NCBI RefSeq assembly: GCF_001262075.1
Contig: NZ_CP012073.1
Span: 1,674,001-1,738,000 of the forward strand
Origin: Ottowia sp. oral taxon 894
GTDB taxonomy: Bacteria > Pseudomonadota > Gammaproteobacteria > Burkholderiales > Burkholderiaceae_C
DNA: 64,000 nucleotides
Direction: 5' to 3'
This document shows positions 1,376 through 63,001 of this stretch, in pieces (within the stretch, counting starts at the first letter, position 1; each line of letters begins with the position of its first letter). The notes beneath the pieces were generated by a model, which did no database searches, was not told where the DNA came from, and saw only the letters and a program-made list of their open reading frames with translations. Both the position numbers and the translations under genes were made by a program.

Positions 1376-1448
1376 TCGTTTGAATAGTGGTAGCGCCCGT
1401 ATCCAGGGCGCTCTGGCGGTTTTCAGGCCCGTTTTTTTGCTCCTGTTC
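1376..1448 (-). repeat. Intergenic repeat, hairpin-core variant
   Basis: The outer part matches the window-wide repeat (a stretch ending in TTTGCTCCTG preceded by TTTTCAGGCCC), but the core is a perfect hairpin, AGCGCCC / GGGCGCT around a GTATCCA loop (about 1392-1412). It directly follows the mutS stop, so it may also act as a 3'-end or terminator-like structure. The hairpin resembles the GCTAGCGC-type repeats I associate with comamonad genomes; that link is from memory. Confidence 0.6.
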
Positions 1449-1769
1449 TGTGGAGCGGCTCTTCGTCTGGCTGAGCAAGGACGAGGAGGCCGGCATGGTT
1501 TTGCTCAAGCGTGGCCCAGATTGCCCGTGGTTTGATTTGGCAAGAGGCTTTCAGAACCTTTTCTGAGTCTGACCGTAGGGCAAAAGCCTGGCTTGGGATG
1601 GCCGCAAGGCTCAAACCGCAGACGGGTTTGAGTTCCAGCAAGGCATTTGCAACGCCGCAGAGCGCCTTCAGGCCGCGCCTTTTGCCCTCACGGGCAAGCC
1701 GTGAACAGGCTCTCGGCCACTCAAGTGCCAGCCTGGGCGGCTGGGATATGCATGCGGAGTGCTTGAAAG
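1449..1769. other. Gap between two repeat copies, no gene seen
   Basis: This stretch lies between two oppositely oriented copies of the intergenic repeat in the convergent mutS-recG gap. Short open frames exist but none has a ribosome binding site or recognisable domain. A small stem TGCCC/GGGCA near 1683-1697 is followed by GTGAACAGGCTCT, a string that recurs at other gene ends in the window. Confidence 0.5.
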
Positions 1770-1849
1770 AGGAGCAAAAAACAGGTGCCCAAAAAGCCGC
1801 CTTGCGCCCGTTCTACTAGGACCTCATGCTACAAATCAAGGAGCGAAAA
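1770..1849 (+). repeat. Intergenic repeat copy
   Basis: Forward copy with core CTAGGACCTCATGCTA (1816-1831) between a GGAGCAAAA box and a GGAGCGAAA box. It lies at the 3' end of recG. Confidence 0.8.
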
Positions 1850-1874
1850 CAATCCTTCGCTCCCAAGCCCTGCA

Positions 1875-4091
1875 TCACGCCTTCAGATAGTCCATGCGCG
1901 CGCCCAGCCAGCGCTGCACGTGCTGCCCGGCCAGGGCGGGGTAGCGCGCCAGCATTTGCGGCGCGGCCTGGCGCGCCCATTCGATGAGCGGCTCGTCTTG
2001 CTGCAAATCGGCAAAGCGCAGCAGGGCCGCGCCGCTTTGGCGCTCGCCCAGAAATTCGCCGGGGCCGCGCAGCGCCAGATCGCGCCGGGCGATTTCAAAG
2101 CCGTCGTGCGTTTCCAGCATGGCCTTCAGGCGCTCGCGGGCCACTTCGCCCAGGCGGCCGCCCTCGGGCACTTCGTAGAGCAGCACGCAGGCGCTGGCGG
2201 CGCTGCCCCGGCCCACGCGGCCGCGCAGCTGGTGCAGCTGGCTCAGGCCAAAGCGCTCGGCGTGCTCGATGACCATGAGGCTGGCATTGGGCACGTCCAC
2301 GCCCACTTCAATCACGGTGGTGCTCACCAGCGCGGCCATCTGGCCGCTGGCAAAGGCGTCCATCACCGCTTTTTTGTCGGCAGCGGGCATGCGCGAGTGC
2401 AGCAGGCCCACGTTCAGGCCGGGCAGGGCGGCGGCCAGCTCGGCGTGGGTTTGCGTGGCGCTTTGCAAGTCCAGCGCCTCGCTTTCCTCGATCAGCGGGC
2501 ACACCCAGTAAGCCTGCGCGCCGCGCCGCAGCTGCTGGTGCAGGCGCTCGATGACTTCGCCGCGCCGGTGGCTGGCAATCAGCTTGGTGAGCACTGGCGT
2601 GCGCCCGGGCGGCAGCTCGTCCAGCGTGGACACGTCCAGATCGGCGTAGCAGCTCATGGCCAGCGTGCGCGGAATGGGCGTGGCGCTCATCATCAGCAAA
2701 TGCGGCTCCTGCCCGGCCAGCTTTTGCCGCAAGGCCAGGCGCTGCGCCACGCCAAAGCGGTGCTGCTCGTCAATCACGGCCAGCCCCAGCCGCGCGAAGT
2801 TCACCTGCTGCTGGATGACGGCGTGCGTGCCCACCACCAGCGCCGCCTCGCCCGATTCAATGGCCTGCAAGGCGGCGGCGCGCTCTTTTTTCTTCTGGCT
2901 GCCCGTCAGCCACGCCACGCGCTGGCCGCGCGCTTGCAGCAGGGGCGCAAGCCACTGCGTGAGCTTGTCAAAGTGCTGGCTGGCCAGAATTTCCGTGGGC
3001 GCCATCAGGGCGCACTGCCAGCCCGAGTCCATCGCCATGCAAGCGGCCAGCGCGGCCACCACCGTTTTGCCCGCGCCCACATCGCCTTGCAGCAGGCGGT
3101 GCATGGGCTGGGGGCGGGCCAGATCGCGCGCAATTTCTTCACTCACGCGGCGCTGCGCCGCCGTCAGCGCAAAAGGCAGCGCCGCCAGCAGCTTTTCATG
3201 CAGTCCGCCTGGGCGCACATGCAGCGCGGGCGCGGCCAGCGCCGCGCGCTCTTGCCGCGCGCGCCACTGCGACAGCTGCTGGGCCAGCAGCTCCTCGGCC
3301 TTCAGGCGCAGCCAGGCCGGATGCACGCGCTCTTGCAAAGCGGCCAGCGGCGTATCGGGCGGCGGCTGGTGCAAAAAAAACAGCGCCTCGCGCAACGTGG
3401 GCGGCGGGCTTTGCGGAGGCACGCCCGCTGCGCCCTTCAGCCCCGCGAACATGCCCGCCGCCAGATCGGGCGGCACGGTCTCGCCCAGCTGCCCGCTGGC
3501 ATCGGCGCGCGCCAGGCCCGACTGCACCGCCTTGCGCAAATACGCCTGCGCCAGCGCGGCCGTGGCCGGATACACGGGCGTGAGCCGCTCAGGCAGCGGC
3601 GCACCGGCCGCGCGCACGGCCGGATGCAGCATCACCGGCCCCGCCAGCCCGCTGCGCAACTGCCCGCGCACCCGCAGCCGCGCGCCCACGGCCATCTGCT
3701 TCATCAGCGAGGGGTAGAAGTTGAAAAAGCGCAGCAGGCACGTGCCGCTGCCGTCATCCAGCGTGACCAGCAGCTGCCGCCGCCCGCCGGCCGCCACTTC
3801 CTGATGGCGCACCACGCCCTCGATCTGCACCTCATCGCCCTCGCGCGCATCGCGCAAGCGGGTGATGTGCGTTTCATCCTCATAGCGCAGCGGCAAATGC
3901 AGCGCCAAATCCATATCGCGCACCAGCCCCAGCTTGCGCAGCGCCTTTTGCGGCGCAGACAAGGCCCTGACCGCTTTCTTTGCGGCGGCATCCGGCGGCG
4001 GGAGTGAAGAGGGTGCTGCGGGCATGGAAGAATTTTGCCCTTCGGGGTTTGGACGCCATGGCATCCCAACCCCGCCTTTCGTGAATGACAA
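1875..4091 (-). CDS. recG: ATP-dependent DNA helicase RecG
   Basis: RecG remodels stalled replication forks and Holliday junctions. The N-terminal wedge/OB region is followed by a superfamily 2 helicase core: Walker [12 protein letters not shown] near residue 335, the DEQH box in [10 protein letters not shown] near residue 440, [11 protein letters not shown], and the late helicase motif QLRGRVGRG. The 738-residue frame is longer than usual; an internal Met 23 codons in (start at 4025) gives 716 residues and avoids a Pro/Ser-rich extension, so that start is quite possible. It is divergent from queA, whose start lies within 100 bp, so the two promoters must share this short region. Identification is secure, the start is not. 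Confidence 0.96.
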
Positions 4092-4117
4092 CAGCCGCCA
4101 GCCAAGCGCCGACTGAC

Positions 4118-5170
4118 ATGACTTGCCCCCGCACCTACGCCACCAGCGATTTCGACTTTGACCTGCCGCCGCAGCTGATTGCCCAGCACCCGGCGGCCAC
4201 GCGCAGCGCTTCGCGCCTGCTGGACGGCACGGGCGCAGCGCCCGCTGACCGGCGCTTTGCCGATTTGCCCGGCCTGCTGCGCGAGGGCGACTTGCTGGTG
4301 CTCAACGACACGCAAGTGGTCAAGGCGCGCCTGTTTGGCGAAAAGCCCAGCGGCGGCAAGCTGGAGCTGCTGGTCGAGCGCGTGCTGGCCGACGGCACGG
4401 TGGCCGCGCACATGCGCGCGAGCAAAAAGCCGCCCGTGGGCGCGCGGCTGCGCATGGCTGGCGGCACGGAGCAAGGCGGCTTCGAGGCCGAGCTGCTGGG
4501 GCGCTGGCCGCAGGCGGACGGCGCGCTGTTTCACTTGCGCTTTTCGGGCGACGCCTACGCGCTGATGGCCGCGCACGGACACGTGCCGCTGCCGCCTTAC
4601 ATCACGCATGCCGATGGCGCGGAAGATGAGGCGCGCTATCAGACGGTGTTTGCCGCGCGCCCCGGCGCGGTGGCCGCGCCCACGGCTTCGCTGCACTTTG
4701 ACGAAGCCGTTTTGCAGGCGCTGGCCGCGCGCGGCGTGCAGCGCGCCTTCGTCACCCTGCACGTGGGCGCGGGCACCTTCCAGCCGGTGAAAACCGAGCG
4801 CCTGAGCGAGCACCAGATGCACGCCGAGCGCTACGACGTGCCCGCCGCCACGCAAGAGGCCATTGCCGCCTGCCGCGCGCGCGGCGGCCGCGTGGTGGCG
4901 GCGGGCACCACCAGCGTGCGCAGCCTGGAAGCGTGGGCGGCCACGGGGCAGGCAAGGGGCGACACGCGCATCTTCATCACGCCGGGCTTTCGCTTTCAGG
5001 TGGCGGACATGCTCCTGACCAATTTCCACCTGCCGCGCAGCACGCTCATGATGCTGGTGAGCGCCTTCGCAGGCCACGCGCACGTGATGGCGCTGTACCG
5101 CCACGCCATTGCGCAGCGCTACCGCTTTTTCAGCTATGGCGACGCCATGCTGCTGGCGCGGCAGGCGTGA
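4118..5170 (+). CDS. queA: tRNA preQ1(34) S-adenosylmethionine ribosyltransferase-isomerase QueA
   Basis: QueA transfers the ribosyl part of S-adenosylmethionine to preQ1 in tRNA to form epoxyqueuosine, the step after Tgt in queuosine synthesis. The frame shows the family hallmarks: N-terminal [47 protein letters not shown], and the C-terminal [19 protein letters not shown]. An earlier in-frame ATG at 4085 would add eleven residues not typical of the family, so the ATG at 4118 is preferred. Length of 350 residues is normal. tgt lies 3.3 kb downstream on the same strand, so two queuosine genes are neighbours although not in one operon. Confidence 0.96.
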
Positions 5171-5269
5171 GGGGCGGCTCCGCGCCCTGCGCCCGTCCCT
5201 GGAAGACGACGGCCCCGGCATGAGCGCCGCCCAGCCCGAAGCAGCCGCTCGAAGGCTTGATCTGAAGCA

Positions 5270-5351
5270 AAAACAGGAGCAGATACAGGGGCAATAAATG
5301 CCGCTCTGCGCAATCTCCACTAGGACGTCATGCTATGAATAGAGGAGCTGA
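5270..5351 (+). repeat. Intergenic repeat copy
   Basis: Forward copy with core CTAGGACGTCATGCTA (5320-5335) between AACAGGAGC and AGAGGAGC boxes. It fills the convergent gap between queA and the DUF4139-type gene. Confidence 0.85.
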
Positions 5352-5373
5352 CGATTGCCATGACCCGGGCCGT

Positions 5374-7029: not shown

Positions 7030-7116
7030 GAGCGGGGTAAAAGCGAAGCGGAAATGCTAGCAGCGCCCTGGCTGGCACTGGATAATTCGCGGCTTTGCCC
7101 ATTCCAGAGTTGCGCC

Positions 7117-9646
<2,530 letters not shown>

Positions 9647-9743
9647 GAGCCTGTTCAGCGTCTGGCACCTGCAATGCCCGCTCTCGTATCCGCTGCGCTG
9701 GCGTAAGAAAGGCGTGGCGGAGCAAGCATGACTGGCCGGTTAT

Positions 9744-9832
9744 TCAGCTCCTGTATCCATAGCATGATGTCCTAGTGGAAGCTGCGCAAGACGGTATTTC
9801 AGACCCTCTGAATTTGCTCCTGTTTTTGATCT
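9744..9832 (-). repeat. Intergenic repeat copy (reference-like)
   Basis: A well-preserved reverse copy: GCTCCTGTATCCA, core TAGCATGATGTCCTAG (9760-9775), GCTGCGCAAGACGG, TATTTCAGACCCTCTGAA, TTTGCTCCTG. It lies between convergent tgt and the ferric-reductase-like gene. Confidence 0.9.
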
Positions 9833-9860
9833 TGTCTGATGGACGGAGCGGCCCGTTTTT

Positions 9861-11240: not shown

Positions 11241-11391
11241 GGCGGGAAAAAAGAGAAAGGCCGCCGCAGAAGGCCGCCTGGGCAAAGCCCGGAAAGGCGC
11301 GGATTCTCGCGGCTTCCCGTCAAGCGCAGGTAAAGCTCGGGCGCAGCGCCACCACTGGGCGGAGCATCCGCAGCAGCGGCTGCAATGGCAT

Positions 11392-11477
11392 CAAAAAAAG
11401 GAGCTAATCAAAGGGCCTTAAATAACCGGCTGCGCAATATCCACTAGGACATCATGCTATGGATAGAGGAGCGAAAT
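11392..11477 (+). repeat. Intergenic repeat copy
   Basis: Forward copy with core CTAGGACATCATGCTA (11444-11459), flanked by the inverted pair TATCCA / TGGATA that could close a stem around the core, and by AAGGAGC and AGGAGCGAAAT boxes. Confidence 0.9.
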
Positions 11478-11509
11478 GAAGGCAAAAGCCCCAAGCTGCA
11501 CGCGCAGCC

Positions 11510-12256: not shown

Positions 12257-12273
12257 GCAGCCTGGCTTGTCTT

Positions 12274-18541: not shown

Positions 18542-18665
18542 ACTGCTGAAGCAGGACGCAGCCCATTCAGCCTTGCCCATGCTGATTCGCGGATATCTCT
18601 CCGCGCCGTGCAGCCATCTCAGTTCCCGGGCCTTTGCTCCTTGCGGCCCGGCTCTGAACAGCTTC

Positions 18666-21600
18666 TTACTTCACCAGCCAGCTTTTGATGCGGCTTTGCC
18701 AGTGCGGCGGCACGGCGCGCGCCAGGCTGGAGAGCACGGGCAGGCTGCGCAGCCAGGCGAGCAGGCGCAGGGCGGCGCTGCGGGGGCCGCTGGCCTGGCC
18801 GGTGGCGGGCAGGTGGGCTTCGAGCACGGCGCGGTCGGGGCCGCCGGGGCGGGGCTGGACGGCGGGCAGGCGGGCCAGGTAGTCGGTGAGATACCAGTCC
18901 ACGGGGCGCTCGGGCGCGGGCGGGATGTGGTGCGTGGCTTCTTTGGGCTGCGCGGCGGCGCAAGGCTGCGGGGCCTGGCCGGTGAGCCAGTGGCGCTGGC
19001 GGATGTCTTCAAAGAAGGCCAGCCACTGGGCGGGGGTTTGGTCCCAGGGCTGCACCCAGGTCCAGCCGCGCCCTTGCAGCCGTTCGGCGAACGCGCCCAA
19101 GTCAGGCGCGACGACGGGCCAGCCGCCCTGCAGGCAGGCGCTCAAGGTGTAGCTGTAGGTTTCGGGCCACTGGGCGGGGAACCAGACGAGGTCGGGCGCC
19201 AGCCAGTCGAGCAGCGCGGGCAGGTCGGCTTCTTCGTAGCGGCCATAGACGGTGAGGTGGGTGCGCGGGCGCGCGCGCAGGGTGCGGTAGCCGTAGCCGA
19301 TGAGGTGGAATTCGACGGGCGCGCCGCTTTTGCGGGCGGCGGCGGCCACGTCTTCCAGCACGTCGGCGCCCTTGATGGCGCTGAGCGCGCCGATCACGGC
19401 CACTTTGAGCGGGCGGCCGCCTTGCAGCGGCTTGGGGTGCGGCGCGGGCAGGGGGCGGGCGGGGTCGATGTCGGTGTGCGGCACGTGGCGCAGGGGGGCG
19501 CCGGGCAGGTAGCGGGCCAGGCGCTGGAGCACGTCGCGCCCCGGCCCGATGAGGTAGCGCGCCTGGTTGGCAAAAGCGATGTGGTTTTGCCGCCAGGCGG
19601 CCAGCGCGGCGGGGCTGCCGCCGGGCGGGCCGTCTTCGCCGCAGTAGCGGCCGTCGGGGCCGGTGAGGGTGATTTCGGGGCAGATGAGGTAGAAGTCGTG
19701 CGCGGTGAAGTCGTAGCCCACGCCCAGGCGCAGCGGCAGCCGGCGCACTTCGTCGCCGTGGCCCAGCAGGTGGTGGAAGTGGATGTGGCACACGCCGAAC
19801 TGGCGCAGCACGTCCAGCAGCAGCGGGTATTCGCTTTGCAAGGAAAAGACCAGCTCGAAGCCTTCATCCGGATCGGGCAGGCGCAGGCTCACGCGCTGGC
19901 CGGGCAGGGGGCGCAGCACGATGAACTGGGCGCGCTCGCGCAAGGCGGCGGCCAGCTCGTGCACGTGGCGCTCGGTGCCGCCCTGGCGGTCGTGCAGCAC
20001 GGCAAGGATGACGGGGCGCGGCTGGCCCTCCTGGTTGGGCGCGAGGATGCGGGCCACGTCCACGGCCATGCGCGCGGGGCGGGCCGGGTCGGCCTGCACG
20101 AAGCGCAGCACATCGCCCTCGTAGCGCGGGTGCAGGCGGCGCAGGGTTTGCATGGCGGCGCGCTCGCGCGGGCTTTTGGCCTCGCCAAAGCTCACGCCGC
20201 CAAAGTGGCGCACGAAGGTGTCGAGCGCGTGCAGGTTGCGCCAGCCCGCCTGGGCGGCGCGGATGCAGAAGTCGTTTTCTTCGCCATAGCCTTTGCCGAA
20301 GTGCTCTTCGTCAAACAGGCCCACGGCCTGCAAGGCGGCGCGGCGGATGTACATGCAAAAGCCTACGCCAGTGGGCACGTCCACGGCCTGGCCGGCGTTG
20401 GCGCGGGCAAAGAGGGCGTCCAGCCGCGCGGTGTCGTAGCCGGCGGGCAGCTCGTTGTCTTTGCAAAACTGCGGGTAGCTGCAAATGGTGGCGTTGTTGG
20501 AAAAGGGCGTGACGGTGGCCACGCGCTGGTCGCCATAGGCGGCGGCGCGGATGCGGTCGAGCCAGTCGCCAGCCACTTCGGCGTCGCTGTTGAGCAGGAG
20601 CACGTCATGCGCATCAGACAGGGCCATGCCGCGATTGACGGTGCCCACAAAGCCCAGGTTCTGTTCGTTTTCCAGCAGGGTGATGCGCGGCTCGCTGGCG
20701 GCCTTGGCGCGCAGCCATTCGGCCAGCTCCGGCTCCGGGCTGGCGTCGTTGATGACGATGAGCCGCCAGGCTGTTTTGCAGCCGCTGGCCAGCACCGATT
20801 CGATGCAGCGGCGCGTGTCTTGCAGCCCGCGATAGACGGGGACGATGATGTCCACGGGCGCATCAGGCGGGGTCAGGGGTTGGGGCGCGGGGGCGGGCTT
20901 GGGGCGGGCCGAGCCGATGCCCAGCAGGCGGTCGATGGACATCTTGGCGTGGACGATGGGGCGCGTGGCGCGAAAGACGGTGGAGTTTTCAATGTCGCGC
21001 AGCAGGCGGCGGGCGTCATCGTTTTCGCGGGTGAGAACGCTGGCGCGCTCCAGCAGGGTTTTGCCCTGCTCGCGCAGGCTGTCGTTTTGCTGCTCCAGCG
21101 CGGCCACCTGGCGGGCCAGCTCGCGCCCTTGCGCCTCGGCGGCGTGCAGGGCGCTGGCGCGCTCGTGCATCTGGCGCTCCCATTCGGCGTGGTCTGCCTG
21201 GTGCGCGGCGCGCTCGCTTTCGGTTTGCTCGCGGGCATCGGCAATTTCACGCTGGGCCGCGCCAGCCAGCGCCAGCCAGTCGGCGGACATGGGCCAGCCT
21301 GCTTGCACTTCCAACGCGCCGCCCGCAGCCAGCGCCAGCGCGTCTGGCGGGATGGGCAGCTCCATCCACGGGTCGTCATCCAGCAGCAGCGCCACCAGCG
21401 CGCCTTGCGGCGTGGCGGGCGGCTGCAAGGCCATGCCGCTGCGTTTGGCTTGCAGCAGGGGCAGGGTGTTGCGGCTATCCCATTGCCAGAGCGGCTCGCC
21501 TGAAGCGCTGCGCAAGGTGATGGCGTGCAGGTAGAAAAAACCGGGGCGGTCGGCGGGGTCGAACTTCAGGCCCGTGGGCGGCTCGCCCGCAGGCAGCTCA

Positions 21601-22457: not shown

Positions 22458-22560
22458 GGGCTGGCATTCAGCAAGGAAAGGAGCGGCGCGCGCCTGAAAG
22501 GCCAGGCGTTCGCGCTCGCTTGATCAGGCAAGAGCCTGGGTTGTGGCCGCCTTTGCGATT

Positions 22561-22647
22561 AAAACAGTAGCAAATTCAGGGCATCCAAAAACAGGATTGT
22601 CGCTTTATCTGCAGGGATGGGTTGCTACCAATCAAGGAGCAAAAATT
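22561..22647 (+). repeat. Intergenic repeat copy, divergent core
   Basis: Forward relative with AACAGTAGCAAATTCAGGGC, TCGCTTTATC, GGTTGCTACC and AAGGAGCAAAAA aligned to the consensus; the CTAGGAC core is changed to CAGGGATGGG. It lies between divergent genes. Confidence 0.6.
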
Positions 22648-22764
22648 TCTCTTTCCTGTGGCCCGCTCGCATGTGTGGATGGGCAAGAGCGAACCGGCGC
22701 CGGAAACCCGGAAAAACGCCCCTGCGGAGAGGGGCGGCAAAGGGGGAGGCAAGAGGGCGTCCAG

Positions 22765-23928
22765 ATGGCGGCGAATGCTACCATGCGCGAATTTTTTGGC
22801 ACTTTTTCCCACATGACTTCGCTGGCGCTGTTTGCCTTTCTGGTGTCACTGGTGGCCACTTTGCTGGTGCGCCGGCTGGCGCTGCGCTGGCACACCCCTT
22901 ATGCGCAAGATGCCTCGCAGCGCCTGCATGTGGGCTATGTGCCGCGCCTGGGCGGGCTGGGCGTGCTTGCGGGCTGGGCCTGCGCCCTCGCGGCGCTGCC
23001 GCTGCTCCAGCGGCTGGGCATGGCGGGCAATATTGATTTGGTCCGGCTGGCCCTGCCTTGGTGGGCGGCCGCGCTGCTGCCCGCCTTTGCTGGCGGCGTG
23101 CTGGAAGATTTGACCCAGCGCCTGACGGCGCGCTGGCGGCTGCTGCTCACCCTGGTTTCGGGCCTGCTGGCCTGGGCGCTGCTGGGCGCGCAGGTGCCGC
23201 GCCTGGGCTTTGGCTGGCTCGACGGCTACTGGAGCGCCGCCCCGTGGCTGGGCGTGGCGCTGGCCGTTTTTGCCGTCACGGGCCTGCCCCATGCCTTCAA
23301 CCTGATCGACGGCGTGAACGGCCTGGCGGGCACCGTGGCGCTGGTGGTGTGCCTGGCTTTCGCGCATGTGGCCATTCAGCTGGGCGACCGGGAGCTGGCC
23401 TCCATCGCCATTGCGCTGGCCGCCGCCACGGCGGGCTTTCTGTTCTGGAACTACCCGCGCGGGCTGGTTTTTGCGGGCGATTCGGGCGCTTACCTGTGGG
23501 GGCTGGTCATTGCCATGCTCAGCGTGCTGCTGGTGCAGCGCCACCCGGGCGTGTCGCCGTGGTTTCCCGTGCTGGTGCTGATGTATCCGGTGTGGGAAAC
23601 CGTTTTTTCTATCTACCGCAAGCTGGCCCGGGGCGACTCGCCCGGCATGGCTGACGCGCTGCACCTGCACCAGCTCATCTACCGCCGCCTGGCGTGCAGC
23701 GTGCTGCAAGAAGACGAGGCCGCCGCCATGCTCAAGCGCAACAGCCGCACAGCGCCCTATCTCTGGGGCTTTTTGCTGCTCACCGTGGCGCCGGCCGTTC
23801 TGTTCTGGCGCAACAGCGCCGTGCTGCTGGCTTTTTGCCTGCTTTTTGCCGCCAGCTACGTGGCGGCTTATCTGAGCCTGGTTCACTTCAAGGCCCAAAG
23901 GGTTTTTGGCCGCAGAAGCGACTCGTGA
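22765..23928 (+). CDS. WecA/MraY-family polyprenyl-phosphate sugar-1-phosphate transferase
   Basis: Such enzymes load a sugar-1-phosphate onto undecaprenyl phosphate to begin O-antigen, enterobacterial common antigen or similar glycans. About ten membrane segments are visible. Family motifs are the cytosolic loop DASQRLHVGYVPRLGG, the acidic GVLEDLTQRLTARWRLL (usually DD; here ED), and the catalytic HAFNLIDGVNGLAG. The C-terminal HLHQLIYRRL matches the substrate-specificity histidine region. The best start is uncertain: ATG at 22765, 22783 or 22813 all precede the first helix. It is divergent from the large glycosyltransferase gene, with which it probably shares a pathway. Confidence 0.85.
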   Translation: MAANATMREFFGTFSHMTSLALFAFLVSLVATLLVRRLALRWHTPYAQDASQRLHVGYVPRLGGLGVLAGWACALAALPLLQRLGMAGNIDLVRLALPWWAAALLPAFAGGVLEDLTQRLTARWRLLLTLVSGLLAWALLGAQVPRLGFGWLDGYWSAAPWLGVALAVFAVTGLPHAFNLIDGVNGLAGTVALVVCLAFAHVAIQLGDRELASIAIALAAATAGFLFWNYPRGLVFAGDSGAYLWGLVIAMLSVLLVQRHPGVSPWFPVLVLMYPVWETVFSIYRKLARGDSPGMADALHLHQLIYRRLACSVLQEDEAAAMLKRNSRTAPYLWGFLLLTVAPAVLFWRNSAVLLAFCLLFAASYVAAYLSLVHFKAQRVFGRRSDS

Positions 23929-23993: not shown

Positions 23994-24080
23994 CCAAAAA
24001 CAGGAGCGAATTCAAGGGCCGGAAATGCCGCTTCGCGCAGTATCCACTAGGACGTTGTGCTCCGAATAAAAGAGCGAAAT
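23994..24080 (+). repeat. Intergenic repeat copy (reference-like)
   Basis: Forward copy with AACAGGAGCGAATTCAAGGG, AAATGCCGCTTCGCGCAG, core CTAGGACGTTGTGCTC (24047-24062) and AGAGCGAAATAAGGAGCG. It lies between convergent genes. Confidence 0.9.
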
Positions 24081-25756: not shown

Positions 25757-25846
25757 CCAAAAAGAGGAGCGAATTTGAGGGGGTGCAAATGCCGTCTGGC
25801 GCAGTTTCCACTAGGACATCATGCTCTTGATTCAAGAGCTAAATCA
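25757..25846 (+). repeat. Intergenic repeat copy
   Basis: Forward copy with AGAGGAGCGAATTTGAGGGG, AAATGCCGTCTGGCGCAG, and core CTAGGACATCATGCTC (25811-25826). It lies between two plus-strand genes. Confidence 0.87.
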
Positions 25847-26673: not shown

Positions 26674-26761
26674 TCAATAAGAAGAGCGAATTCAAAGGGG
26701 CAAAAAAGCCACTCGTCGCTTTATTGGCGTGATAGTGCGCTATGAAACAAAGAGCGAATCA
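26674..26761 (+). repeat. Intergenic repeat copy, divergent core
   Basis: Forward relative with AAGAGCGAATTCAAAGGGGC, CGTCGCTTTATTGGCGTGAT, AGTGCGCTATGAAAC and AAAGAGCGAATC. The CTAGGAC core is replaced, as in the 22.6 kb copy. Confidence 0.7.
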
Positions 26762-42256: not shown

Positions 42257-42643
42257 TCTCTCAGGACCAGACTTTGGACGGGTTCAGAACGCGGCTGGCA
42301 TCTCATTGACTGTGGCGATGCCATGCGGCGCCAGCTTCAGCGCGCGCCAGCGGCCACTGCGGTTGATTGCGCCGCTGTCCGTTTGGCAATGGGTTGCGGG
42401 TCATGCAGCAATGCAGTCAGTGGCGCGTGCTCTATTTCATTGAATTCATTGACAGAGCCACGCTGCCTGCCGCGCCTGGCGCCGCCTTGCGGCCCCGCCA
42501 CCACAGCCCCGAAGAGCAGGCTGCCCTGCTGGCTGAGGTGCAGGCGCTTTGAAGGGGCTTTGCCGGGGCAAACTCCACTTGGTGCGCGATTCCGACCGTT
42601 ACGTCCTGGGCTTTGATGGCGGCATGCGCCAGCAAGCACCATG
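42257..42643 (+). other. Gap with possible decayed gene, no function seen
   Basis: Frames here read like coding debris: VMQQCSQWRVLYFIEFIDR followed by SPEEQAALLAEVQAL and a stop, then in another frame GKLHLVRDSDRYVLGFDGGM. I do not recognise a family. A broken gene beside the IS pair is possible but not shown. Confidence 0.3.
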
Positions 42644-42731
42644 ATTTCGCTCTTTTATTCGTAGCATCATGTCTTAGTGCAAACTGGGCTGAATGGCATA
42701 TCTGGCCTTCGAATTTGCTCCTGTTTCTGAT
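42644..42731 (-). repeat. Intergenic repeat copy
   Basis: Reverse copy with TTCGCTCTTTTATTCG, core TAGCATCATGTCTTAG (42662-42677), GGCCTTCGAA and TTTGCTCCTG. It lies at the 3' end of ffh, about 400 bp from the truncated copy in the same orientation. Confidence 0.85.
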
Positions 42732-42765
42732 GTGGATTGACCGCAGCCAGATCATGAACAGGTTC

Positions 42766-44178
42766 TTAAAACGGCCCTTTCCCGCCCATTCCGGGAGGCA
42801 TGGGCGGCAGGCCGCCGCCGAGCAGGCCGCCCAGGCCTTTCATGCCGCCCATGCGGCGCATGAGCTTCATCAGGCCGCTGCCTTTGAGCTGTTTCATCAT
42901 GCCCTGCATCTGCTCGAACTCTTTGAGCAGGCGGTTGACTTCCTGCACATGCACGCCCGCGCCCTGGGCGACGCGGCGCTTGCGGCTGGCCTTGAGCAGC
43001 TCGGGCTTGCGGCGCTCTTCGGGGGTCATGCTGTTGATGATGCCTTCCTTGCGGCGGATGTCTTTTTCGGCGCGGGTCAGGTCGGCTTCGCTGGCTTTGG
43101 CGGCCAGCTGGGTGGGCAGTTTGTCCATGAAGCTGCCCAGGCCGCCCATTTGCTTCATCTGCTGGAGCTGGCCGAGAAAGTCTTCCAGGTCGAAGCTGCT
43201 GCCCTTTTTCATTTTTTCGGCCAGCTTCCGGGCGGCGGCCAAATCCACGCCTTCGGCCACTTGCTCGACCAGGGCCACGATGTCGCCCATGCCGAGGATG
43301 CGGCCCGCGTGGCGTTCGGCGTCGAACACTTCCAGGCCGTCGATTTTTTCGGATGTGCCCGCGAATTTGATGGGCGCGCCGGTGATTTGCCGCACCGACA
43401 GCGCCGCGCCGCCGCGCGAGTCGCCGTCCATCTTGGTGAGCACGATGCCGGTGAGCGGCAGCGCCTGGCTGAAGGCTTTGGCGGTGTTGGCGGCGTCCTG
43501 GCCTTGCATGGCATCGACCACGAACAAAGTTTCCACGGGCTTGAGGGCGGCGTGCAGGGTTTTGATTTCCTGCATCAGCGCTTCGTCAATGGCCAGGCGG
43601 CCTGCGGTGTCCACCAGCAGCACGTCGTAATACTGGCGGCGGGCGTGGTCCAGGGCAGCGCGGGCGATGTCCAGCGGCTGCTGATCGGGCGAGGAAGGGA
43701 ACCAGTCGGCGCCGGCCTGCGCCGTCACGGTTTTGAGCTGCTCGATGGCGGCGGGGCGGTACACGTCGCCCGAGACGGTGAGCACTTTTTTCTTGCGCTT
43801 CTGGATCAGGTGCCGCGCCAGTTTGGCCGTGGTGGTGGTTTTGCCCGCGCCTTGCAGGCCGGCCATGAGGATGACGGCGGGCGGCTGCGCGGCCAGGTTG
43901 ATGTCGCTCACGCCTTCGCCCATGGTGGCGGCCAGCTCGCGATTGACGATGCCCACCAGCGCCTGGCCGGGTTTGAGGCTGCCCAGCACTTCCTGGCCCA
44001 GCGCCTTTTCTTTCACGCGGGCGATGAAGTCGCGCACCACGGGCAGGGCCACGTCGGCTTCCAGCAGGGCCATGCGCACTTCGCGCAGCATGTCGGCCAC
44101 GTTGCTTTCGGTGATGCGGGCCTGGCCGCTGATGTGCTTGACCAGGCGCGAGAGTTTTTCGGTAAGGGCGGAGGCCAT
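42766..44178 (-). CDS. ffh: Signal recognition particle GTPase Ffh
   Basis: Ffh with 4.5S RNA targets nascent membrane proteins to FtsY. The N domain (MASALTEKLSRLVKHISGQA) leads into the G domain: GLQGAGKTTTTAKLA, DVYRPAAIEQLKT, LLVDTAGRLAID, LTKMDGDSRGGAAL. The methionine-rich M domain has FMDKLPTQL, INSMTPEERRKPELL and a GMGG-containing tail. The frame is open upstream to 44307 but the Met at 44178 matches the family start and gives 470 residues. Confidence 0.97.
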   Translation of the reverse strand: MASALTEKLSRLVKHISGQARITESNVADMLREVRMALLEADVALPVVRDFIARVKEKALGQEVLGSLKPGQALVGIVNRELAATMGEGVSDINLAAQPPAVILMAGLQGAGKTTTTAKLARHLIQKRKKKVLTVSGDVYRPAAIEQLKTVTAQAGADWFPSSPDQQPLDIARAALDHARRQYYDVLLVDTAGRLAIDEALMQEIKTLHAALKPVETLFVVDAMQGQDAANTAKAFSQALPLTGIVLTKMDGDSRGGAALSVRQITGAPIKFAGTSEKIDGLEVFDAERHAGRILGMGDIVALVEQVAEGVDLAAARKLAEKMKKGSSFDLEDFLGQLQQMKQMGGLGSFMDKLPTQLAAKASEADLTRAEKDIRRKEGIINSMTPEERRKPELLKASRKRRVAQGAGVHVQEVNRLLKEFEQMQGMMKQLKGSGLMKLMRRMGGMKGLGGLLGGGLPPMPPGMGGKGPF

Positions 44179-51857: not shown

Positions 51858-51945
51858 ATTTGCCCCTGATTTCATAGCATGAAGTCTTGGTGAAATCAGC
51901 GCAAAACGGGTTTTTTGACCCTATAAATTTGCTCCTTTTTAATTG
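51858..51945 (-). repeat. Intergenic repeat copy
   Basis: Reverse copy with CCTGATTTCA, core TAGCATGAAGTCTTGG (51875-51890), AATCAGCGCAAAACGGG, TTGACCCTATAA and ATTTGCTCCTTTTT. Confidence 0.8.
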
Positions 51946-54878: not shown

Positions 54879-54966
54879 GATGCGTGTTCTCCCTAGTGAA
54901 AAATGACGGCATGATAAGCGACTTTTTTCAACATTTGAACGATTTTTCTTGCAAGGAAACACCATC

Positions 54967-55752: not shown

Positions 55753-55806
55753 TCGGCGCTGGCAGTCCGCCCGCAGCTGCCGTGCGGGCGCAAGCAGGCA
55801 TCGATT

Positions 55807-55889
55807 CAGCTCCTTATTCCATAGCATTAGGTCCTAGTAGAACGAGCGCGAGCGCCCATTTCTGGCTCCTAAATTTGCTCCTCTTATTG
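55807..55889 (-). repeat. Intergenic repeat copy abutting the porin start
   Basis: Reverse copy with CAGCTCCTTATTCCA, core TAGCATTAGGTCCTAG (55822-55837), GAGCGCCCATTTCTGG and AAATTTGCTCCTCTTATTG. Its last bases touch the porin ATG, so the repeat forms most of the porin leader. Confidence 0.85.
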
Positions 55890-56852
55890 ATGCAAAAAAC
55901 CTTCTATTCGCGCCCGGACCGCTTGGCCTTGGCCCTGCTGGCCGCCAGCCTTTTCGCGCCCGCCGTGGCGCAAGGACAGGACGGCGTCACGCTGTATGGA
56001 CGCCTGGACGTCAATCTCACCCGCGCCCGAGGTCAGAAATGGCACATGGACCGCGCCTCGCACAGCCGCATCGGCCTGCGCGGCAGCGAAGATCTGGGCG
56101 GCGGCCTGCGCGCCCAGTTCCAGCTTGAAAGCCGCATCAGCCTGAAGGACGGCGCTGTGGACGCCGCCCGCCCCTGGGGCCGCCAGGCCTGGCTGGGCCT
56201 GCGCGGCCCTTGGGGCGCGCTGCGCATGGGGCGCTCTTACTCGCCTTCGCGCTACGCCGCTTCCAGCTATGACGCAATGGACGGCGGCATCGGCACGCCA
56301 GGCACGCGCGCCTTGCTGCTGGGCCACGCTTCAGCCACCTTTGTGCGTTTTGAAAACGGCGTGTATTACGAAACCCCCCGGCTGGCGGGTTTGGCCTTGT
56401 CTGCTGCCGTCTCGCTCCATGCCGCAGGCGGCGCAAAGCCCCGGCGCCGGGCGCGTTCACTTCGCCTGCACTATCGGCGTGGCGCGGCAGATCTCTCCGT
56501 GGCCTACGGCCAGCCAGGCGAAGGCGGGCATGTGGCATCAGCGGGCCTGGCATGGGATTTCGGTTTCATCAAACCAATGGCCCAGTTCCATGCAGGCGCC
56601 CGCGAGGGGCGCTGCCGCGCTGCCTGGCAGATCGGTCTGGCGCTGCCCAGCGGCGCGGGCGAATGGCGCGCCGCTTTTTCGCGGCTCGATGACCGTGGCC
56701 CTGCGCCGCAAGCCGACCGCAAGCTGCTGGCCTTGAGCTACCGCCACAAGCTCTCCCGGCGCACCGTGCTCTACGCCACGGTGGCGCATGACCAGGCCCG
56801 CAGTCAGCCAGGCCGCAAAGGCATTGAGCTGGGACTGCGGCATTCTTTTTGA
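55890..56852 (+). CDS. Gram-negative porin (short OmpC-like)
   Basis: A signal peptide (residues 1-27, LALALLAASLFAPAVAQG) is followed by VTLYGRLDVNLTRARG, the first strand of betaproteobacterial trimeric porins, then SRIGLRGSEDLGGGLRAQFQ and LGLRGPWGALRMGRSYSPSR. It ends with the beta-signal LGLRHSF with the terminal Phe needed for outer-membrane insertion. At 320 residues with signal it is shorter than the 350-380 usual for the group. No clear ribosome binding site precedes the ATG; the upstream bases belong to an intergenic repeat. Open frames further upstream add no signal-like sequence. Confidence 0.88.
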   Translation: MQKTFYSRPDRLALALLAASLFAPAVAQGQDGVTLYGRLDVNLTRARGQKWHMDRASHSRIGLRGSEDLGGGLRAQFQLESRISLKDGAVDAARPWGRQAWLGLRGPWGALRMGRSYSPSRYAASSYDAMDGGIGTPGTRALLLGHASATFVRFENGVYYETPRLAGLALSAAVSLHAAGGAKPRRRARSLRLHYRRGAADLSVAYGQPGEGGHVASAGLAWDFGFIKPMAQFHAGAREGRCRAAWQIGLALPSGAGEWRAAFSRLDDRGPAPQADRKLLALSYRHKLSRRTVLYATVAHDQARSQPGRKGIELGLRHSF

Positions 56853-57204
56853 TGCATGGGTTCTGAAGGCCCGCTCAAAGTTTGCCTTGGGTGCGGAAAG
56901 CGCAGCCTCGGGTGACTTGGGGCGTTGCGAATCCTCGCCGGGTCACAAGATCCGTTTGTGGTTTGCGCCTTGCCGTTCGCGCTGATCCTCTGCCCCTGAC
57001 GGTCAGATTGCAAACAGGCTCTTGGGGCGTGAAGCGGCGCATCGCGGACACGGTCTGTTTCCTGCTGTTCATCGCTGTTTCCGTCTGTTCATTCCGATAG
57101 CATCCGCCAGGCTGCTGGCCGCATGGAGCTGGCGGCGCGCTCCCATTTCCCATTCCACATTTCCCATTCCATCCCGCCCGCCTGATCCGCCAAGGACCAC
57201 CCTC
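56853..57204. other. Gap before the giant ATPase gene, no gene seen
   Basis: It contains one CAAACAGGCTCTT string like those at other gene ends, but no supported coding frame. The ATPase frame is open back to 57022, yet these codons do not look coding. Confidence 0.4.
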
Positions 57205-60200: not shown

Positions 60201-62760
60201 GCTCACCGAATCCGACCTTGCCGACCCTGCTGAATCCGCTGAAAACGGCGAAGCGGCCGCCCCCGCTGCCCTGCTGGAGCCGCTGCGCCGCTTTGCCGCC
60301 GCCCGCTACCAGGAGGGCTACCAGCGCGGCATTCATGACGATGACGCGCTGGCCATCGTGCGCGCCCTTGCCCCCATGCAGGCCGCCGCCGGGCTGCTTA
60401 TCTACAGCGGCGCGGCCCGCGCGCTGGCCCTGCTGATGTGGGAAAACGGCCTGCGCGACGAAGCGCGCGAATCGCTGGCCCGGCGCGCGCGCGCCGCGCA
60501 AGGCATTGCGCTACTGTTTTCAGAGCGCCAAAGCGTTGATGCGCTTGCGGCAGAGGCGGATTTGATGCTGCAAGCCTTCGCGGCCGAACACCCCGACGTG
60601 CTGCAAGAGCTGCTGCCCGCCGCCGACGACGCGCAAGAGCGCGCCAGCCTGTGCCGCGAAGCCGCCGCCTACCTTGCGCGCGAGCTGGCGCAAGGCGAAG
60701 CCGAAGGGGGCCTGACCTGGGCCGCCAGCGGCAGCGGGCAGGACTTGGCTGCCGCGCTGGAGCGCTCGCTGGACAGCGGCGGCCAGCTGGCGGCCTGGCA
60801 GCGCGACCTGGCCGCCGCCGCTCCGCTGGAGAAGTGGCGCATCGCCCGCCAGTGGGCCAGTGCCTTCGCGCAAGCCCAGGGCAAAGACAGCGCCGCACGC
60901 CCGGGCAGCGTGGAAGACGCCGCCACCTGCCTGGCGTGCGCCGCCGCGCGCCGCCGCGTCAATGCCGCTCTCACGGCCACCGTCACCGGCCTGCGCAGCG
61001 AGCACCCGCGCATCACGAACGGCGCGCTGGCGCTGGATCTCAATGACTTCTGGCAGCGCGTGCGCCGCCACCGCGAGCGCGTGCTGCCCGGCTTTCACGC
61101 CTTCCAGACCCTGCGGCACGAGCTGCTGGAGCAAGAGCGCGCCCGCCTGCACCTGGCGCAGTTTCAGGCCCAGCCCCTCACCACTTTCGTGCGCAACCGG
61201 CTCATTGACGAGGTGTATCTGCCGCTCATCGGCGCCAACCTTGCGCGGCAAATCGGCGCGGCGGGCGAAGCCAGCCGCAGCGACCGCAGCGGGCTGCTGC
61301 TGCTCATCTCCCCGCCCGGCTACGGCAAAACCACGCTCATGGAATACGTGGCCCAGCGGCTGGGGCTGGTGTTCGTGCGCATCAACTGCCCGGCGCTGGG
61401 CCACGGCGTGACCAGCATCGACCCCGCCGCCGCCCCCAACAGCGCCGCGCGCCAGGAGCTGGAAAAGCTCAACCTCGGCCTGGCGATGGGCAGCAACGTC
61501 ATGCTGTATCTGGACGACATCCAGCACACCCACCCCGAATTCCTGCAAAAGTTCATCGCCCTGGCCGACAGCACCCGCCGCATCGAAGGCGTATGGCAGG
61601 GCCAAAGCCGCACCTGGGACATGCGCGGCAAGCGCTTTGCCATCGTCATGGCCGGCAACCCCTACACCGAATCGGGCGAAGTCTTCCGCATCCCCGACAT
61701 GCTCGCCAACCGCGCCGACATCTACAACCTGGGCGACGTGCTCACGGGCCGCGAAGAAGCGTTTGCCCTTTCCTACATCGAAAACAGCCTCACCAGCCAC
61801 CCCGTCACCCAGCCGCTGGCCAGCCGCGAGCCGCAAGACGTGCAGCTGCTCGTGCGCATGGCCCAGGGCGAAGCCGTGGACGCCGCCCGCCTGGCCCACC
61901 CCTACAGCGCCGCCGAGCTGGAAGAAATCCGCAACCTGCTGGTGCGCCTGATGAGCGTGCGCGACGTGCTGCTCAAGGTCAATCAGGCCTACATCCAGTC
62001 CGCCGCGCAAGACGACCGCTACCGCCAGTCGCCCCCCTTCCGGCTGCAAGGCAGCTACCGCAACATGGCGCGCCTGGCCCCGCAAGTCACCCCGCTGATG
62101 ACACCGCAGGAAATCGGCGATCTGCTGCGCGACCACTACCGCGCCGAAGCCCAGACCCTCACCAGCGGCGCGGAAGAAAACCTGCTCCAGCTCGCCCAGC
62201 TCACCGGCCAGGCCACTGAAGCAGAAACCGCCCGCTGGCAGCAAGTGCAGGCCGAATTCCGCCGCCAGCGCCAGATGGGCGGCGCCGATGACGACCCCGC
62301 CATCCGCATCACGCGCGGCCTGCTCGATATTTCACGCAGCCTCGAAGCCCTCAACCCCGAAAAAACCGCCGAAAAACTGGCCCGCCAGCTCACGCAAGGC
62401 CACATGCTCCTGGCGCGGCCCCTGACCGCACTGGCCCGCAGCATCAAGGAAGGCGACGCGGCCACCCAGCGCCAGCTGCAAGACACCCTGTCCGCCACGG
62501 CAGCCGCCCTCAAGGCCTTGCAGGGCGCCGCCGCCGATCTGGCCCAGCACAGCGACCGCGCCCAGGAAAAGTGCATGGTCGAAGCGCTGCTGTCGCTTTC
62601 CGTCACCTACCGCCAGCTCATCATGCCGCTGGTGCGCGGCATCGAAGCGCGCCTGGGCCACGACGCGCCAACACGGGCGCAGACACACGCGCAAATCGAA
62701 CAAGTGGAAAAAGAGCTGCGCAAGCTAGAGCAAAAGGAACACGAGCCACGAAGCTCATGA
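57205..62760 (+). CDS. Giant DUF3686-type 'DNA repair ATPase' with C-terminal AAA+ domain
   Basis: An 1851-residue cytosolic protein. Residues about 30-480 form a beta-rich region (HNCVARDMVRIGPGKLLFGF, FRWRYESDGSLTYVDNRGER) of the type called DUF3686. A long helical, coiled-coil middle follows (about 500-950), then a conserved helical region. The AAA+ ATPase lies at about 1365-1620 with Walker A LLISPPGYGKTTLMEY, Walker B NVMLYLDDIQHTHPEFLQ, and GKRFAIVMAGNPYTESGEVF. A helical tail ends in a charged coiled coil. Families of this kind are annotated as DNA repair ATPases, but I know no demonstrated activity. It stands alone, with a repeat copy downstream. The ATG follows GGACCACC at a suitable distance. 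Confidence 0.82.
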   Translation: MNAPEERNAERAAENPEAAAVDAVDAAVAASSSYELLKKRLQAQGGALLDKALALNAGRQAQFGQTEQRLVLRTRARTEHNCVARDMVRIGPGKLLFGFNVFMGLRQETGVGDVFALYELAHTEGEAESDELIALPIEGSFLQDARFVADFRELYTYYKHATLRQLTHTQEYVLASFQIGQQNQDIRVFRWRYESDGSLTYVDNRGERDIALPASHDFEWTAVTREQHVSGRHPHINILDTVFVETTGGDLTVKVENNTESGLGIYSEPVEDASQALGDAEIAYAKLGRLILLRIRPYRESTVRYLVYNQRTQQVVRIDAIGASCVQLPEDHGIIFPGGYYLQSGEYKQFDLPAETAANLRFARMLRSPNGEDVAYIFYGSTPHNGKSGQGHSDISHLDIPHYALFTYNLIEKRLAAPIMANGFARFYDGRVLVFQATQGEATRIHPMQLWQTPFATEEYASRQPGRHGTGFYGRVGNADLVRGISDLNGIARAVREQAPTRTAYEDLIRQCQRARDAYFWLDAPEAGQAAQDLHAIEQTAQATLAEFEKVEAIRASTARALDAAESKTRELLGELAAQMWRQPADFVHALEQLRQRQGEMHALRELRYADVPRIDGMAQQLAAEQQRVGERALQFLSGEKAFAAQEQALAQLTQQLPQAGSATQVGDMLAGLDAQAAGLDLLSEQIGLLPGGDAVQRTAILDRIARLYADINRLRAEARQRRRTLGAAEQRAEFGAQFKLFGQAVENALELADTPEKCDEALTRLLAQLEDIEARFADQEDFLADIAAQREAVYEALGARRQSLLDARQRRAKALADAAGRILDGVPRRVASFADVAQVHSYFAADPLLAKLREQGAELRRLGAAVAADDLATRLKAAQEQAMRAVRDQRDLAAEDAAGGAGGIRLGQHVFTVNRQPIDLTLVAHEEGGQPALAWQITGTDYLAPARDERLLALRPFWNQPLASETPQLARAEWLAAQWLDAVQAGQAEPGWDALLAALTESDLADPAESAENGEAAAPAALLEPLRRFAAARYQEGYQRGIHDDDALAIVRALAPMQAAAGLLIYSGAARALALLMWENGLRDEARESLARRARAAQGIALLFSERQSVDALAAEADLMLQAFAAEHPDVLQELLPAADDAQERASLCREAAAYLARELAQGEAEGGLTWAASGSGQDLAAALERSLDSGGQLAAWQRDLAAAAPLEKWRIARQWASAFAQAQGKDSAARPGSVEDAATCLACAAARRRVNAALTATVTGLRSEHPRITNGALALDLNDFWQRVRRHRERVLPGFHAFQTLRHELLEQERARLHLAQFQAQPLTTFVRNRLIDEVYLPLIGANLARQIGAAGEASRSDRSGLLLLISPPGYGKTTLMEYVAQRLGLVFVRINCPALGHGVTSIDPAAAPNSAARQELEKLNLGLAMGSNVMLYLDDIQHTHPEFLQKFIALADSTRRIEGVWQGQSRTWDMRGKRFAIVMAGNPYTESGEVFRIPDMLANRADIYNLGDVLTGREEAFALSYIENSLTSHPVTQPLASREPQDVQLLVRMAQGEAVDAARLAHPYSAAELEEIRNLLVRLMSVRDVLLKVNQAYIQSAAQDDRYRQSPPFRLQGSYRNMARLAPQVTPLMTPQEIGDLLRDHYRAEAQTLTSGAEENLLQLAQLTGQATEAETARWQQVQAEFRRQRQMGGADDDPAIRITRGLLDISRSLEALNPEKTAEKLARQLTQGHMLLARPLTALARSIKEGDAATQRQLQDTLSATAAALKALQGAAADLAQHSDRAQEKCMVEALLSLSVTYRQLIMPLVRGIEARLGHDAPTRAQTHAQIEQVEKELRKLEQKEHEPRSS

Positions 62761-62914
62761 ACGGCGAAACGAAAAATCCCTGCGCGTGAAATGGCTCATG
62801 GGCCAAGCAGCATGCCGCAAGCGCATGGATGCCACCGCCGCCCGCGCGGGCAGCCCCCGCTTTGCGGAGCGGGCTGCATTTCAGGCGAGATCATGTGCGG
62901 CGGAGAATGGCTTT

Positions 62915-63001
62915 TTAGCTCCTTTATCCATAGCGCGATGTCCTAGTAGATATTGCGCAGAATGATATTTATGCCCCTTTGAATTTGCTCCTGTTTTGAT
63001 T
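62915..63001 (-). repeat. Intergenic repeat copy (reference-like)
   Basis: Reverse copy with TTTAGCTCCTTTATCCA, core TAGCGCGATGTCCTAG (62931-62946), ATATTGCGCAGAATGATATT, GCCCCTTTGAATTTGCTCC. It lies in the convergent gap between the ATPase gene and rplY. Confidence 0.9.

What the first reader, a model, noticed from the sequence alone, without database searches (positions are those of the whole stretch)
1376..63001. Dense family of intergenic repeats with core TAGCATGATGTCCTAG
Seen directly: about fifteen clear copies plus four to five degenerate ones occupy nearly every intergenic gap outside the ribosomal cluster, in both orientations. The layout is constant: a GGAGC-type box, about 20 bp ending in GGG, AAATGCC-like, TGCGCA, CTAGGACATCATGCTA, a second GGAGC-type box 67-69 bp from the first. 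None lies in a gene I support. Ends are direct, not inverted, repeats, so it is not a classic MITE; in several copies TATCCA/TGGATA could close a stem around the core. Most copies sit at 3' ends or in convergent gaps, suggesting a 3'-end, RNA-stability or nucleoid role. The density is unusual.
Basis: seen in the sequence. Interest (0 to 1): 0.75.

Follow-up and report, generated by a model that had tools for sequence, protein, structure and literature searches.

The report
One-per-gap DNA repeats of Ottowia
A bacterium of the genus Ottowia carries an estimated 650 copies of an 87-letter DNA element, seldom more than one in a gap between genes and mostly near gene ends, and its conserved parts look kept by selection rather than freshly copied, which suggests a widespread and little-studied signal at gene boundaries.

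Summary
The family is real. A profile finds 17 stretches in the window and 189 in 864 kb of the genome (reversed control 0), about 650 per genome. It is an 86-87 bp, A+T-rich element with two direct AGC boxes 68-69 bp apart. Of gaps of at least 90 bp it occupies 52 of 80 convergent, 97 of 256 tandem and 16 of 84 divergent ones, without orientation preference and with few doubles (6 extra copies; 33-61 expected). Conserved columns barely vary while the most variable ones are near saturation. In the sample there is no recent duplicate and few decayed copies. I saw no target-site duplication or terminal inverted repeats, and the genome has no Y1/RAYT transposase. The folded-RNA idea fails. It is a variant, seen only in this genome so far, of a Comamonadaceae repeat (Acidovorax, Comamonas, Polaromonas, other Ottowia) in which AGCGCTTG-N5-CAAGCGC stands for the GCGC...CTAGGAC part; ten literature searches found no description. 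The density is ordinary for the genus. Most likely it is a DNA-level, protein-recognised site at transcription-unit boundaries, of mobile origin but now fixed. Protein and function are inferred, not shown; a mobile family is nearly as likely.

The parts
9744..9829 (-). full copy, convergent gap after tgt
   Evidence: profile 80.2 bits; neighbour
25758..25843 (+). full copy, tandem gap after a thioredoxin-TPR gene
   Evidence: 72.1 bits; neighbour
62915..62997 (-). full copy, convergent gap
   Evidence: 68.6 bits
5268..5350 (+). full copy, convergent gap after queA
   Evidence: 66.6 bits; neighbour
11391..11475 (+). full copy, tandem gap, 3' of pgpA
   Evidence: 66.2 bits; neighbour
23995..24078 (+). 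full copy, convergent gap, 3' of an AIR carboxylase gene (purE)
   Evidence: 65.1 bits; neighbour
55806..55890 (-). full copy, tandem gap, directly before the called start of a porin gene (a longer ORF from 55782 would include it)
   Evidence: 64.4 bits; neighbours
51859..51940 (-). full copy, convergent gap
   Evidence: 60.6 bits
18453..18537 (+). full copy, convergent gap
   Evidence: 60.3 bits
1765..1847 (+). full copy, convergent gap between a MutS-family gene and a recG-like gene
   Evidence: 56.7 bits; neighbours
42646..42730 (-). full copy, convergent gap, 3' of ffh
   Evidence: 54.1 bits; neighbour
22561..22643 (+). diverged copy; divergent gap by my calls, but inside the longer ORF 22543-23928
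   Evidence: 42.7 bits (ORF)
26674..26758 (+). diverged copy with a changed core, tandem gap
   Evidence: 37.3 bits
54004..54084 (+). diverged copy, tandem gap
   Evidence: 34.7 bits
49814..49896 (-). diverged copy, tandem gap
   Evidence: 32.9 bits
42197..42252 (-). partial copy: box 1 to core
   Evidence: profile positions 3-59, 32.6 bits
12199..12250 (-). doubtful partial copy
   Evidence: 17.2 bits, E 0.003

Best explanation
The element is a DNA-level site at the ends of transcription units. A protein, not yet known, recognises several conserved blocks laid out over about 80 bp at fixed spacing: AGGAGCnAAT, AAA, GCGC, CACTAGGACnTnnTGCTAT and AGGAGCnAA. It acts without regard to orientation, for example as a barrier or topological site between neighbouring transcription units or as a nucleoid-protein site. 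The sites are an old version of a Comamonadaceae repeat that must once have spread by copying; today they are maintained by selection, usually one per gap. Shown here: anatomy, copy number, preference for convergent and avoidance of divergent gaps, the one-per-gap rule, block-wise constraint without recent duplicates in the sample, lack of RNA structure, and the family-wide relatives. Inferred: that a protein binds, that selection acts on single copies, and that the purpose is boundary, topology or nucleoid function.
For: (1) Constraint: 175 full copies differ pairwise at 7.9% of cells in 39 conserved columns, 44% in 30 intermediate and 65% in 17 variable ones. Nearest-neighbour identity has median 0.805 and maximum 0.894, against 0.78 and 0.84-0.87 for column-shuffled copies, so no copy in the sample is a recent duplicate of another. 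(2) Few decayed copies: 7 of 189 score below 30 bits, mode 60-70; 125 of 126 core matches in the sample lie inside profile copies. (3) Rigid geometry: length between profile ends 86 or 87 in 170 of 174; box spacing 68/69 in 167 of 170 measured. (4) Place: convergent 52 of 80, tandem 97 of 256, divergent 16 of 84 eligible gaps occupied (Fisher p 2e-9 convergent against divergent, 3e-5 convergent against tandem); the order holds in three gap-length classes; convergent copies score higher (p 4e-5). (5) One per gap: 6 extra copies against 60.6, 33.1, 38.7 and 41.6 under four placement schemes; in four congeners 5 against 24.4. (6) No orientation bias, 45:56. (7) No RNA fold. (8) In three low-copy stretches that I examined, the parts with phage or conjugative-element genes hold no copy.
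Against: No binding protein was found or sought. Intrinsic-terminator-like hairpins are as frequent in tandem gaps with the element as without (30 of 82 and 34 of 91, p 1.0) and not significantly rarer in convergent gaps (18 of 44 and 12 of 19, p 0.17), so no replacement of terminators is seen. The sequence differs strongly between species of the genus, easier for a family that spreads by copying than for hundreds of fixed sites. Avoidance of divergent gaps and genes is also what harmful insertions would show. In four congeners the convergent preference is absent (17 against 14.3 expected, p 0.46) and 29 of 109 copies were not placed in gaps. Neighbouring columns are correlated, so subfamilies exist and the copies are not fully independent. 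Profile searches favour conserved copies. The mobile stretches were looked at because they had few copies; no prophage was looked for elsewhere. At single genes, keeping of our sites across species is not shown.
Confidence: 0.42

Rival explanations
1. A selfish, non-autonomous mobile family (MITE- or REP-like in behaviour) moved in trans by an unknown enzyme. Copies survive only where they do little harm, in 3' gaps. One per gap comes from target choice or insertion immunity, and the conserved blocks are what the enzyme needs.
For: Hundreds of copies with unrelated flanks in both orientations; congeners have their own variants, and this genome also holds 10 separate copies per 864 kb of a second, classical-like variant; subfamily blocks; divergent gaps and genes are avoided.
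Against: No close pairs in the sample, few decayed copies, no terminal inverted repeats by inspection, no target-site duplication (best of 2,527 settings 7 of 174 copies), no PF01797 match in the genome, mobile parts of three examined stretches without a copy. A 131-base query around one copy finds nothing in plasmid or phage records, and the exact core nothing in viral contigs.
Confidence: 0.36
2. A bidirectional transcription terminator or roadblock acting on RNA polymerase at gene ends.
For: Best occupancy and best scores in convergent gaps; a weak A-rich/GC/T-rich hairpin could act both ways.
Against: No stable fold; intrinsic terminators are not replaced; conserved blocks lie mostly outside the weak hairpin.
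Confidence: 0.12
3. A folded RNA in 3' untranslated regions (stability, processing).
For: 3' position; slight arm match in hairpin 1 (z -2.5 sense, -3.7 antisense; 24 of 500 shuffles).
Against: Energies near shuffled; the proposed stem shows no covariation; no Rfam match to the repeat; no orientation bias.
Confidence: 0.06

Closest known systems
Comamonadaceae-wide intergenic repeat, consensus AAAtngGCCtCC-AGCGCTTG-N5-CAAGCGC-tg-GCAGCTAT-caatttngtAGca (derived here from 129 copies; I recalled seeing such repeats but know no published name)
   Same: Same order of blocks (AAA-GCC-GCGC-...-GCTAT-...-AGC); in four Ottowia congeners mostly single per gap and few in divergent gaps.
   Different: Here the AGCGCTTG/CAAGCGC palindrome is lost (right arm CTAGGAC), and copies bear an upstream box (AGC in 174 of 174; GAGC in 156 of 174), 68-69 bp from the second. 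The broad consensus does not show that box.
REP/BIME elements (PMC2817692; passages seen by a term search)
   Same: Hundreds of intergenic copies, species-specific sequence; BIMEs bind gyrase and IHF, a possible functional analogue.
   Different: No GT(A/G)G head, no GC-rich palindrome, no Y1_Tnp match in the genome, single copies rather than clusters, 86-87 bp.
BRE, Beta-proteobacterial repeat element of Bordetella (PMC3110155; abstract, passages and section 14 read)
   Same: About 90 bp, mostly intergenic, also reported from Comamonadaceae; no known function.
   Different: BRE: at most 29 copies per genome, tandem arrays, mean GC 69% in Bordetella. Here: about 650 dispersed copies, GC 45%.
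MITEs (Correia and RUP, named in a passage of PMC2817692; their details recalled)
   Same: Small, many, non-coding, intergenic.
   Different: No terminal inverted repeats by inspection; no target-site duplication found.

Membership tests
REP / BIME with RAYT | GT(A/G)G head followed by a GC-rich palindrome | tested here: not met
   Consensus has no such head or palindrome; no stable fold.
REP / BIME with RAYT | cognate Y1 (RAYT) transposase in the genome | tested here: not met
   PF01797: 0 matches in the genome; found in 5 of 14 control genomes. Relatives were not searched for it.
REP / BIME with RAYT | many intergenic copies, clustered in mosaic units | tested here: inconclusive
   Many copies, but singles: 159 gaps with one, 6 with two.
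MITE | terminal inverted repeats | tested here: not met
   By inspection of the alignments the ends are direct AGGAGC boxes.
MITE | target-site duplication | tested here: not met
   At most 7 of 174 copies in the best of 2,527 settings; old copies could have lost it.
BRE (Bordetella) | sequence homology to the published BRE | not tested
BRE (Bordetella) | tandem, variable-number arrays and high GC | tested here: not met
   GC 0.452 against flanks 0.644; 159 of 165 occupied gaps hold one copy.
Comamonadaceae-wide repeat (this report) | shared block order and profile similarity | tested here: met
   The model of this family finds related copies in 12 of 28 congeners (read). The broad profile overlaps 9 of the 189 copies here, 7 on the same strand. 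11 of 29 copies of congener G014 have an AGGAC-like right arm.
Structured RNA family (Rfam) | covarying helix / Rfam hit | tested here: not met
   hairpin 1 weak only. Seven loci of relatives gave only a tRNA.
Intrinsic terminator | GC hairpin plus U-run, replacing other terminators | tested here: not met

The most novel reading that the evidence does not exclude
Comamonadaceae chromosomes are punctuated by an undescribed boundary element, an estimated several hundred to more than a thousand copies, usually one per intergenic gap, bound by a dedicated protein that coevolves with it so that species have their own versions. It would insulate neighbouring transcription units from each other.
Probability: 0.25. 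Interest if true: 0.85.

Novelty: new variant of a known kind. Interest (0 to 1): 0.6.

Why it matters
If gaps between transcription units carry one selected DNA site each across a bacterial family, this would be a genome-wide boundary system comparable to, but distinct from, BIMEs; the searches made here found no description of it. Even as a mobile relic, block-wise constraint with no recent copies in the sample and a one-per-gap rule is a pattern that I know of no account for (recalled, not searched). Laboratory Acidovorax and Comamonas strains would make it testable.

Tried and rejected
Rejected: folded RNA. Terminators replaced by the element (a looser scan was uninformative because its controls were nearly as high). 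An element in the loop of a larger hairpin, suggested by one copy and refuted over 174 (z -0.6 and -1.0). Target-site duplication. REP/RAYT.

Change in place of ancestral sites: at ffh 11 of 20 evaluated congeners have an element after the gene, all oriented as in our genome. By eye a twelfth, G014, which the profile did not pass, has one in the opposite orientation. At pgpA 9 of 23 do, but reading them showed that there it seems to form the start of the next gene (cinA-like to my eye, recalled, not searched), and our genome has another neighbour. So orthology with our copies is not shown. For these counts I gave only part of the fetched loci: 21 congeners of 25 with a match for tgt, 20 of 28 for ffh, 21 of 27 for gph, 25 of 26 for pgpA and 21 of 28 for trx, leaving out broken, cut or paralogous matches; a length and stop filter then left 20, 20, 20, 23 and 19. 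The threshold was lenient (12 bits) and had no control of its own.

A first count that suggested frequent double copies in congeners was an artefact: the palindromic classical element matches on both strands. After merging (190 to 158 matches) most gaps there hold one (70 with one, 5 with two). The densities are superseded.

Literature: 10 searches gave no paper on this repeat; BRE was the only near case. Most subscription papers are not in that library.

Limits: statistics rest on 864 kb (window plus 40 evenly spaced 20-kb stretches; 10 kb of it N), 30% of the genome. Gene calls come from a simple codon-usage caller that I wrote; starts are unreliable and part of the ribosomal cluster was missed. 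8 of 189 copies could not be assigned. The folding z used the 100 best-scoring of 174 copies. The model search scores at most 150 candidates per genome, so 150 for the own genome is a floor. L040, L054 and L065 were examined because they had few copies; other low-copy stretches were not identified.
Full report
What is there. The window belongs to a 2.93-Mb single-contig genome. A profile seeded with 13 window copies and iterated on 41 stretches (window plus 40 of 20 kb; 864 kb, 10 kb of it N) gives 189 copies, and 0 in the reversed sequence, hence about 650 per genome.

Anatomy. Of 174 copies with complete flanks, 170 are 86 or 87 long between the profile's ends. Consensus: TCAAAAACAGGAGCAAATTCAAGGGG(n3-4)AAAnnCCnnTTTGCGCAnnTTCCACTAGGACnTCATGCTATGGATAnAGGAGCGAAA. 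The most conserved blocks are AGC of box 1 (187 of 187 letters at each of its three columns), AAA, GCGC, AGGAC, GCTAT and AGC of box 2. The distance between the AGC boxes is 68 or 69 in 167 of 170 measured copies. G+C is 0.45 against 0.64 in the flanks. Flanks are not complementary to each other, and no target-site duplication is visible.

Where it lies. With my own gene caller 171 of 189 copies fall in gaps, 10 overlap a called gene by more than 25 bases and 8 were unassigned. Occupied gaps among those of at least 90 bp: convergent 52 of 80, tandem 97 of 256, divergent 16 of 84 (Fisher p 2e-9 convergent against divergent and 3e-5 convergent against tandem). The order holds within length classes, for example at 200-350 bp 24 of 38, 41 of 76 and 6 of 30. 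In tandem gaps 45 copies run with the genes and 56 against (p 0.32). Copies are mostly single: 159 gaps hold one and 6 hold two. Six extra copies compare with 60.6 under length-weighted placement, a figure inflated by a few long gaps, and with 33.1, 38.7 and 41.6 under three more conservative schemes. Copies in convergent gaps score higher than the rest (p 4e-5).

How old and how constrained. Among 175 full copies the best pair is 89.4% identical. The nearest-neighbour median of 0.805 is a little above that of column-shuffled copies (0.78), and the maximum 0.894 above theirs (0.84-0.87). Copies therefore behave nearly like independent draws from one profile, with some subfamily linkage, which neighbouring columns also show. 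Pairwise differences are 7.9% in 39 conserved columns, 44% in 30 intermediate and 65% in 17 variable ones. Only 7 of 189 copies score under 30 bits. Neutral decay of dead transposon copies would spread changes over all columns and leave a tail of weak matches; neither is seen. Three stretches with few copies were looked at more closely: L054 (tail and methyltransferase genes of a prophage) and L040 (genes like those of a conjugative element: AcaB, ParB-like, helicase) have none, and in L065 both copies lie beyond the integrase gene of a prophage. They were chosen for their low counts, so this is an illustration and not a test. The exact core is absent from viral contigs, and a query around one copy finds nothing in phage or plasmid records. 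Only 30% of the genome was sampled, so the parent of a young copy would be missed about two times in three.

Not an RNA. Mean folding z-scores are -0.35 (sense) and -0.08 (antisense) for the 100 best-scoring of 174 copies. A weak hairpin around AAGGGG-AAAT-CC is supported a little. Rfam finds only a tRNA in the window at the gathering threshold, nothing on the repeat at E up to 1, and only a tRNA in seven loci of relatives. Intrinsic-terminator-like hairpins occur equally in tandem gaps with and without the element (30 of 82 and 34 of 91; antisense controls 10 and 13), and in convergent gaps in 18 of 44 and 12 of 19 (p 0.17).

Relatives. The core with two mismatches is missing from 40 relatives (24 of the genus, 16 of the order) except for one stray match, and from 199 other genomes of the family except for four single matches. 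No named species genome of the r220 collection holds the exact core, near relatives of the window's genome possibly left out. A sequence-only model of the family finds weaker relatives in 12 of 28 congeners, 38 in G014 and 1-3 in the others. Reading them led to a classical version, AAAnngGCC..AGCGCTTG-N5-CAAGCGC..GCAGCTAT..AGC. In the four congeners with 100 kb sampled each, density is 2.1-3.4 per 10 kb; six others, with smaller samples or stretches partly chosen around matches, have 0.4-2.5. In those four, 80 of 109 copies lie in gaps. Divergent gaps hold 6 against 16.8 expected (p 0.001), convergent 17 against 14.3 (p 0.46), and extra copies per gap are 5 against 24.4 (length-weighted). So the one-per-gap rule and the avoidance of divergent gaps extend to congeners, the convergent preference does not. 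In G014, 11 of 29 copies carry an AGGAC-like right arm as here. The present genome also has 10 separate copies of a classical-like variant in the sample.

Orthologous sites. After ffh 11 of 20 evaluated congeners have an element, all oriented as in our genome (by eye G014 has one in the opposite orientation); after tgt 4 of 20, opposite to ours; after trx 1 of 19; after gph 0 of 20; after pgpA 9 of 23. At pgpA the relatives' element seems to form the start of the next gene, and our genome has a different neighbour. Site sharing among congeners is therefore likely at two genes, but descent of our copies from the same insertions is not shown.

Interpretation. Orientation independence, rigid spacing, conserved blocks without structure, position at unit ends and one per gap point to a DNA-binding site acting at transcription-unit boundaries. 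The nearest functional analogue is the gyrase- and IHF-binding BIMEs (PMC2817692, passages), but REP membership fails on head, palindrome and transposase. BRE (PMC3110155, abstract and section 14) is about 90 bp and beta-proteobacterial, but has at most 29 copies, tandem arrays and 69% G+C; its sequence could not be compared. The main rival is a selfish family moved by an unknown enzyme.

Noticed in passing
window 1553-1572 (+), 9646-9665 (+), 18647-18666 (-), 42267-42286 (-), 42747-42766 (-); genome sample: A second repeat, TnAGAaCCTGTTCAnaGtCTGgCCGtGaG: 60 copies in the 864-kb sample by profile (0 in the reversed control), 36 of 60 within 250 bp of an 87-bp element (12% of the sample lies that near). 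20 of 60 have a same-strand gene end near their start, 14 of them exactly at the stop codon. It looks like a 3'-UTR module that begins in the stop codon.
   Followed up: partly
L043:6047-6099, L037:12604-12656, L062:14323-14378 and 7 others in the sample: A low-copy second variant of the Comamonadaceae repeat in the same genome, e.g. AAGTCCCCGTGGAATCAGCGCGGGCAGCTATC.
   Followed up: partly
L364, L365, L366, L370, L374-L376, L380, L381 (3' of pgpA in congeners): By eye the repeat seems to have become the first codons of the gene after pgpA (ATGCTACAAAATAAAGAGCTG...), an apparent case of a repeat turned into coding sequence.
   Followed up: no
L157, L160, L188, L191; L145: In several congener loci the last box seems to supply the start codon or ribosome-binding site of the next gene (..GCTATTGAATCATGAGCA.., AAGGAGCAAACATG).
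   Followed up: no
L187, L188, L191 (3' of ffh in three congeners): A long inverted repeat with GCAGAGGACGCAAAGG... on one side and CTTTTGCGTCCTCTGCG on the other stands before the element, or a close form of it.
   Followed up: no
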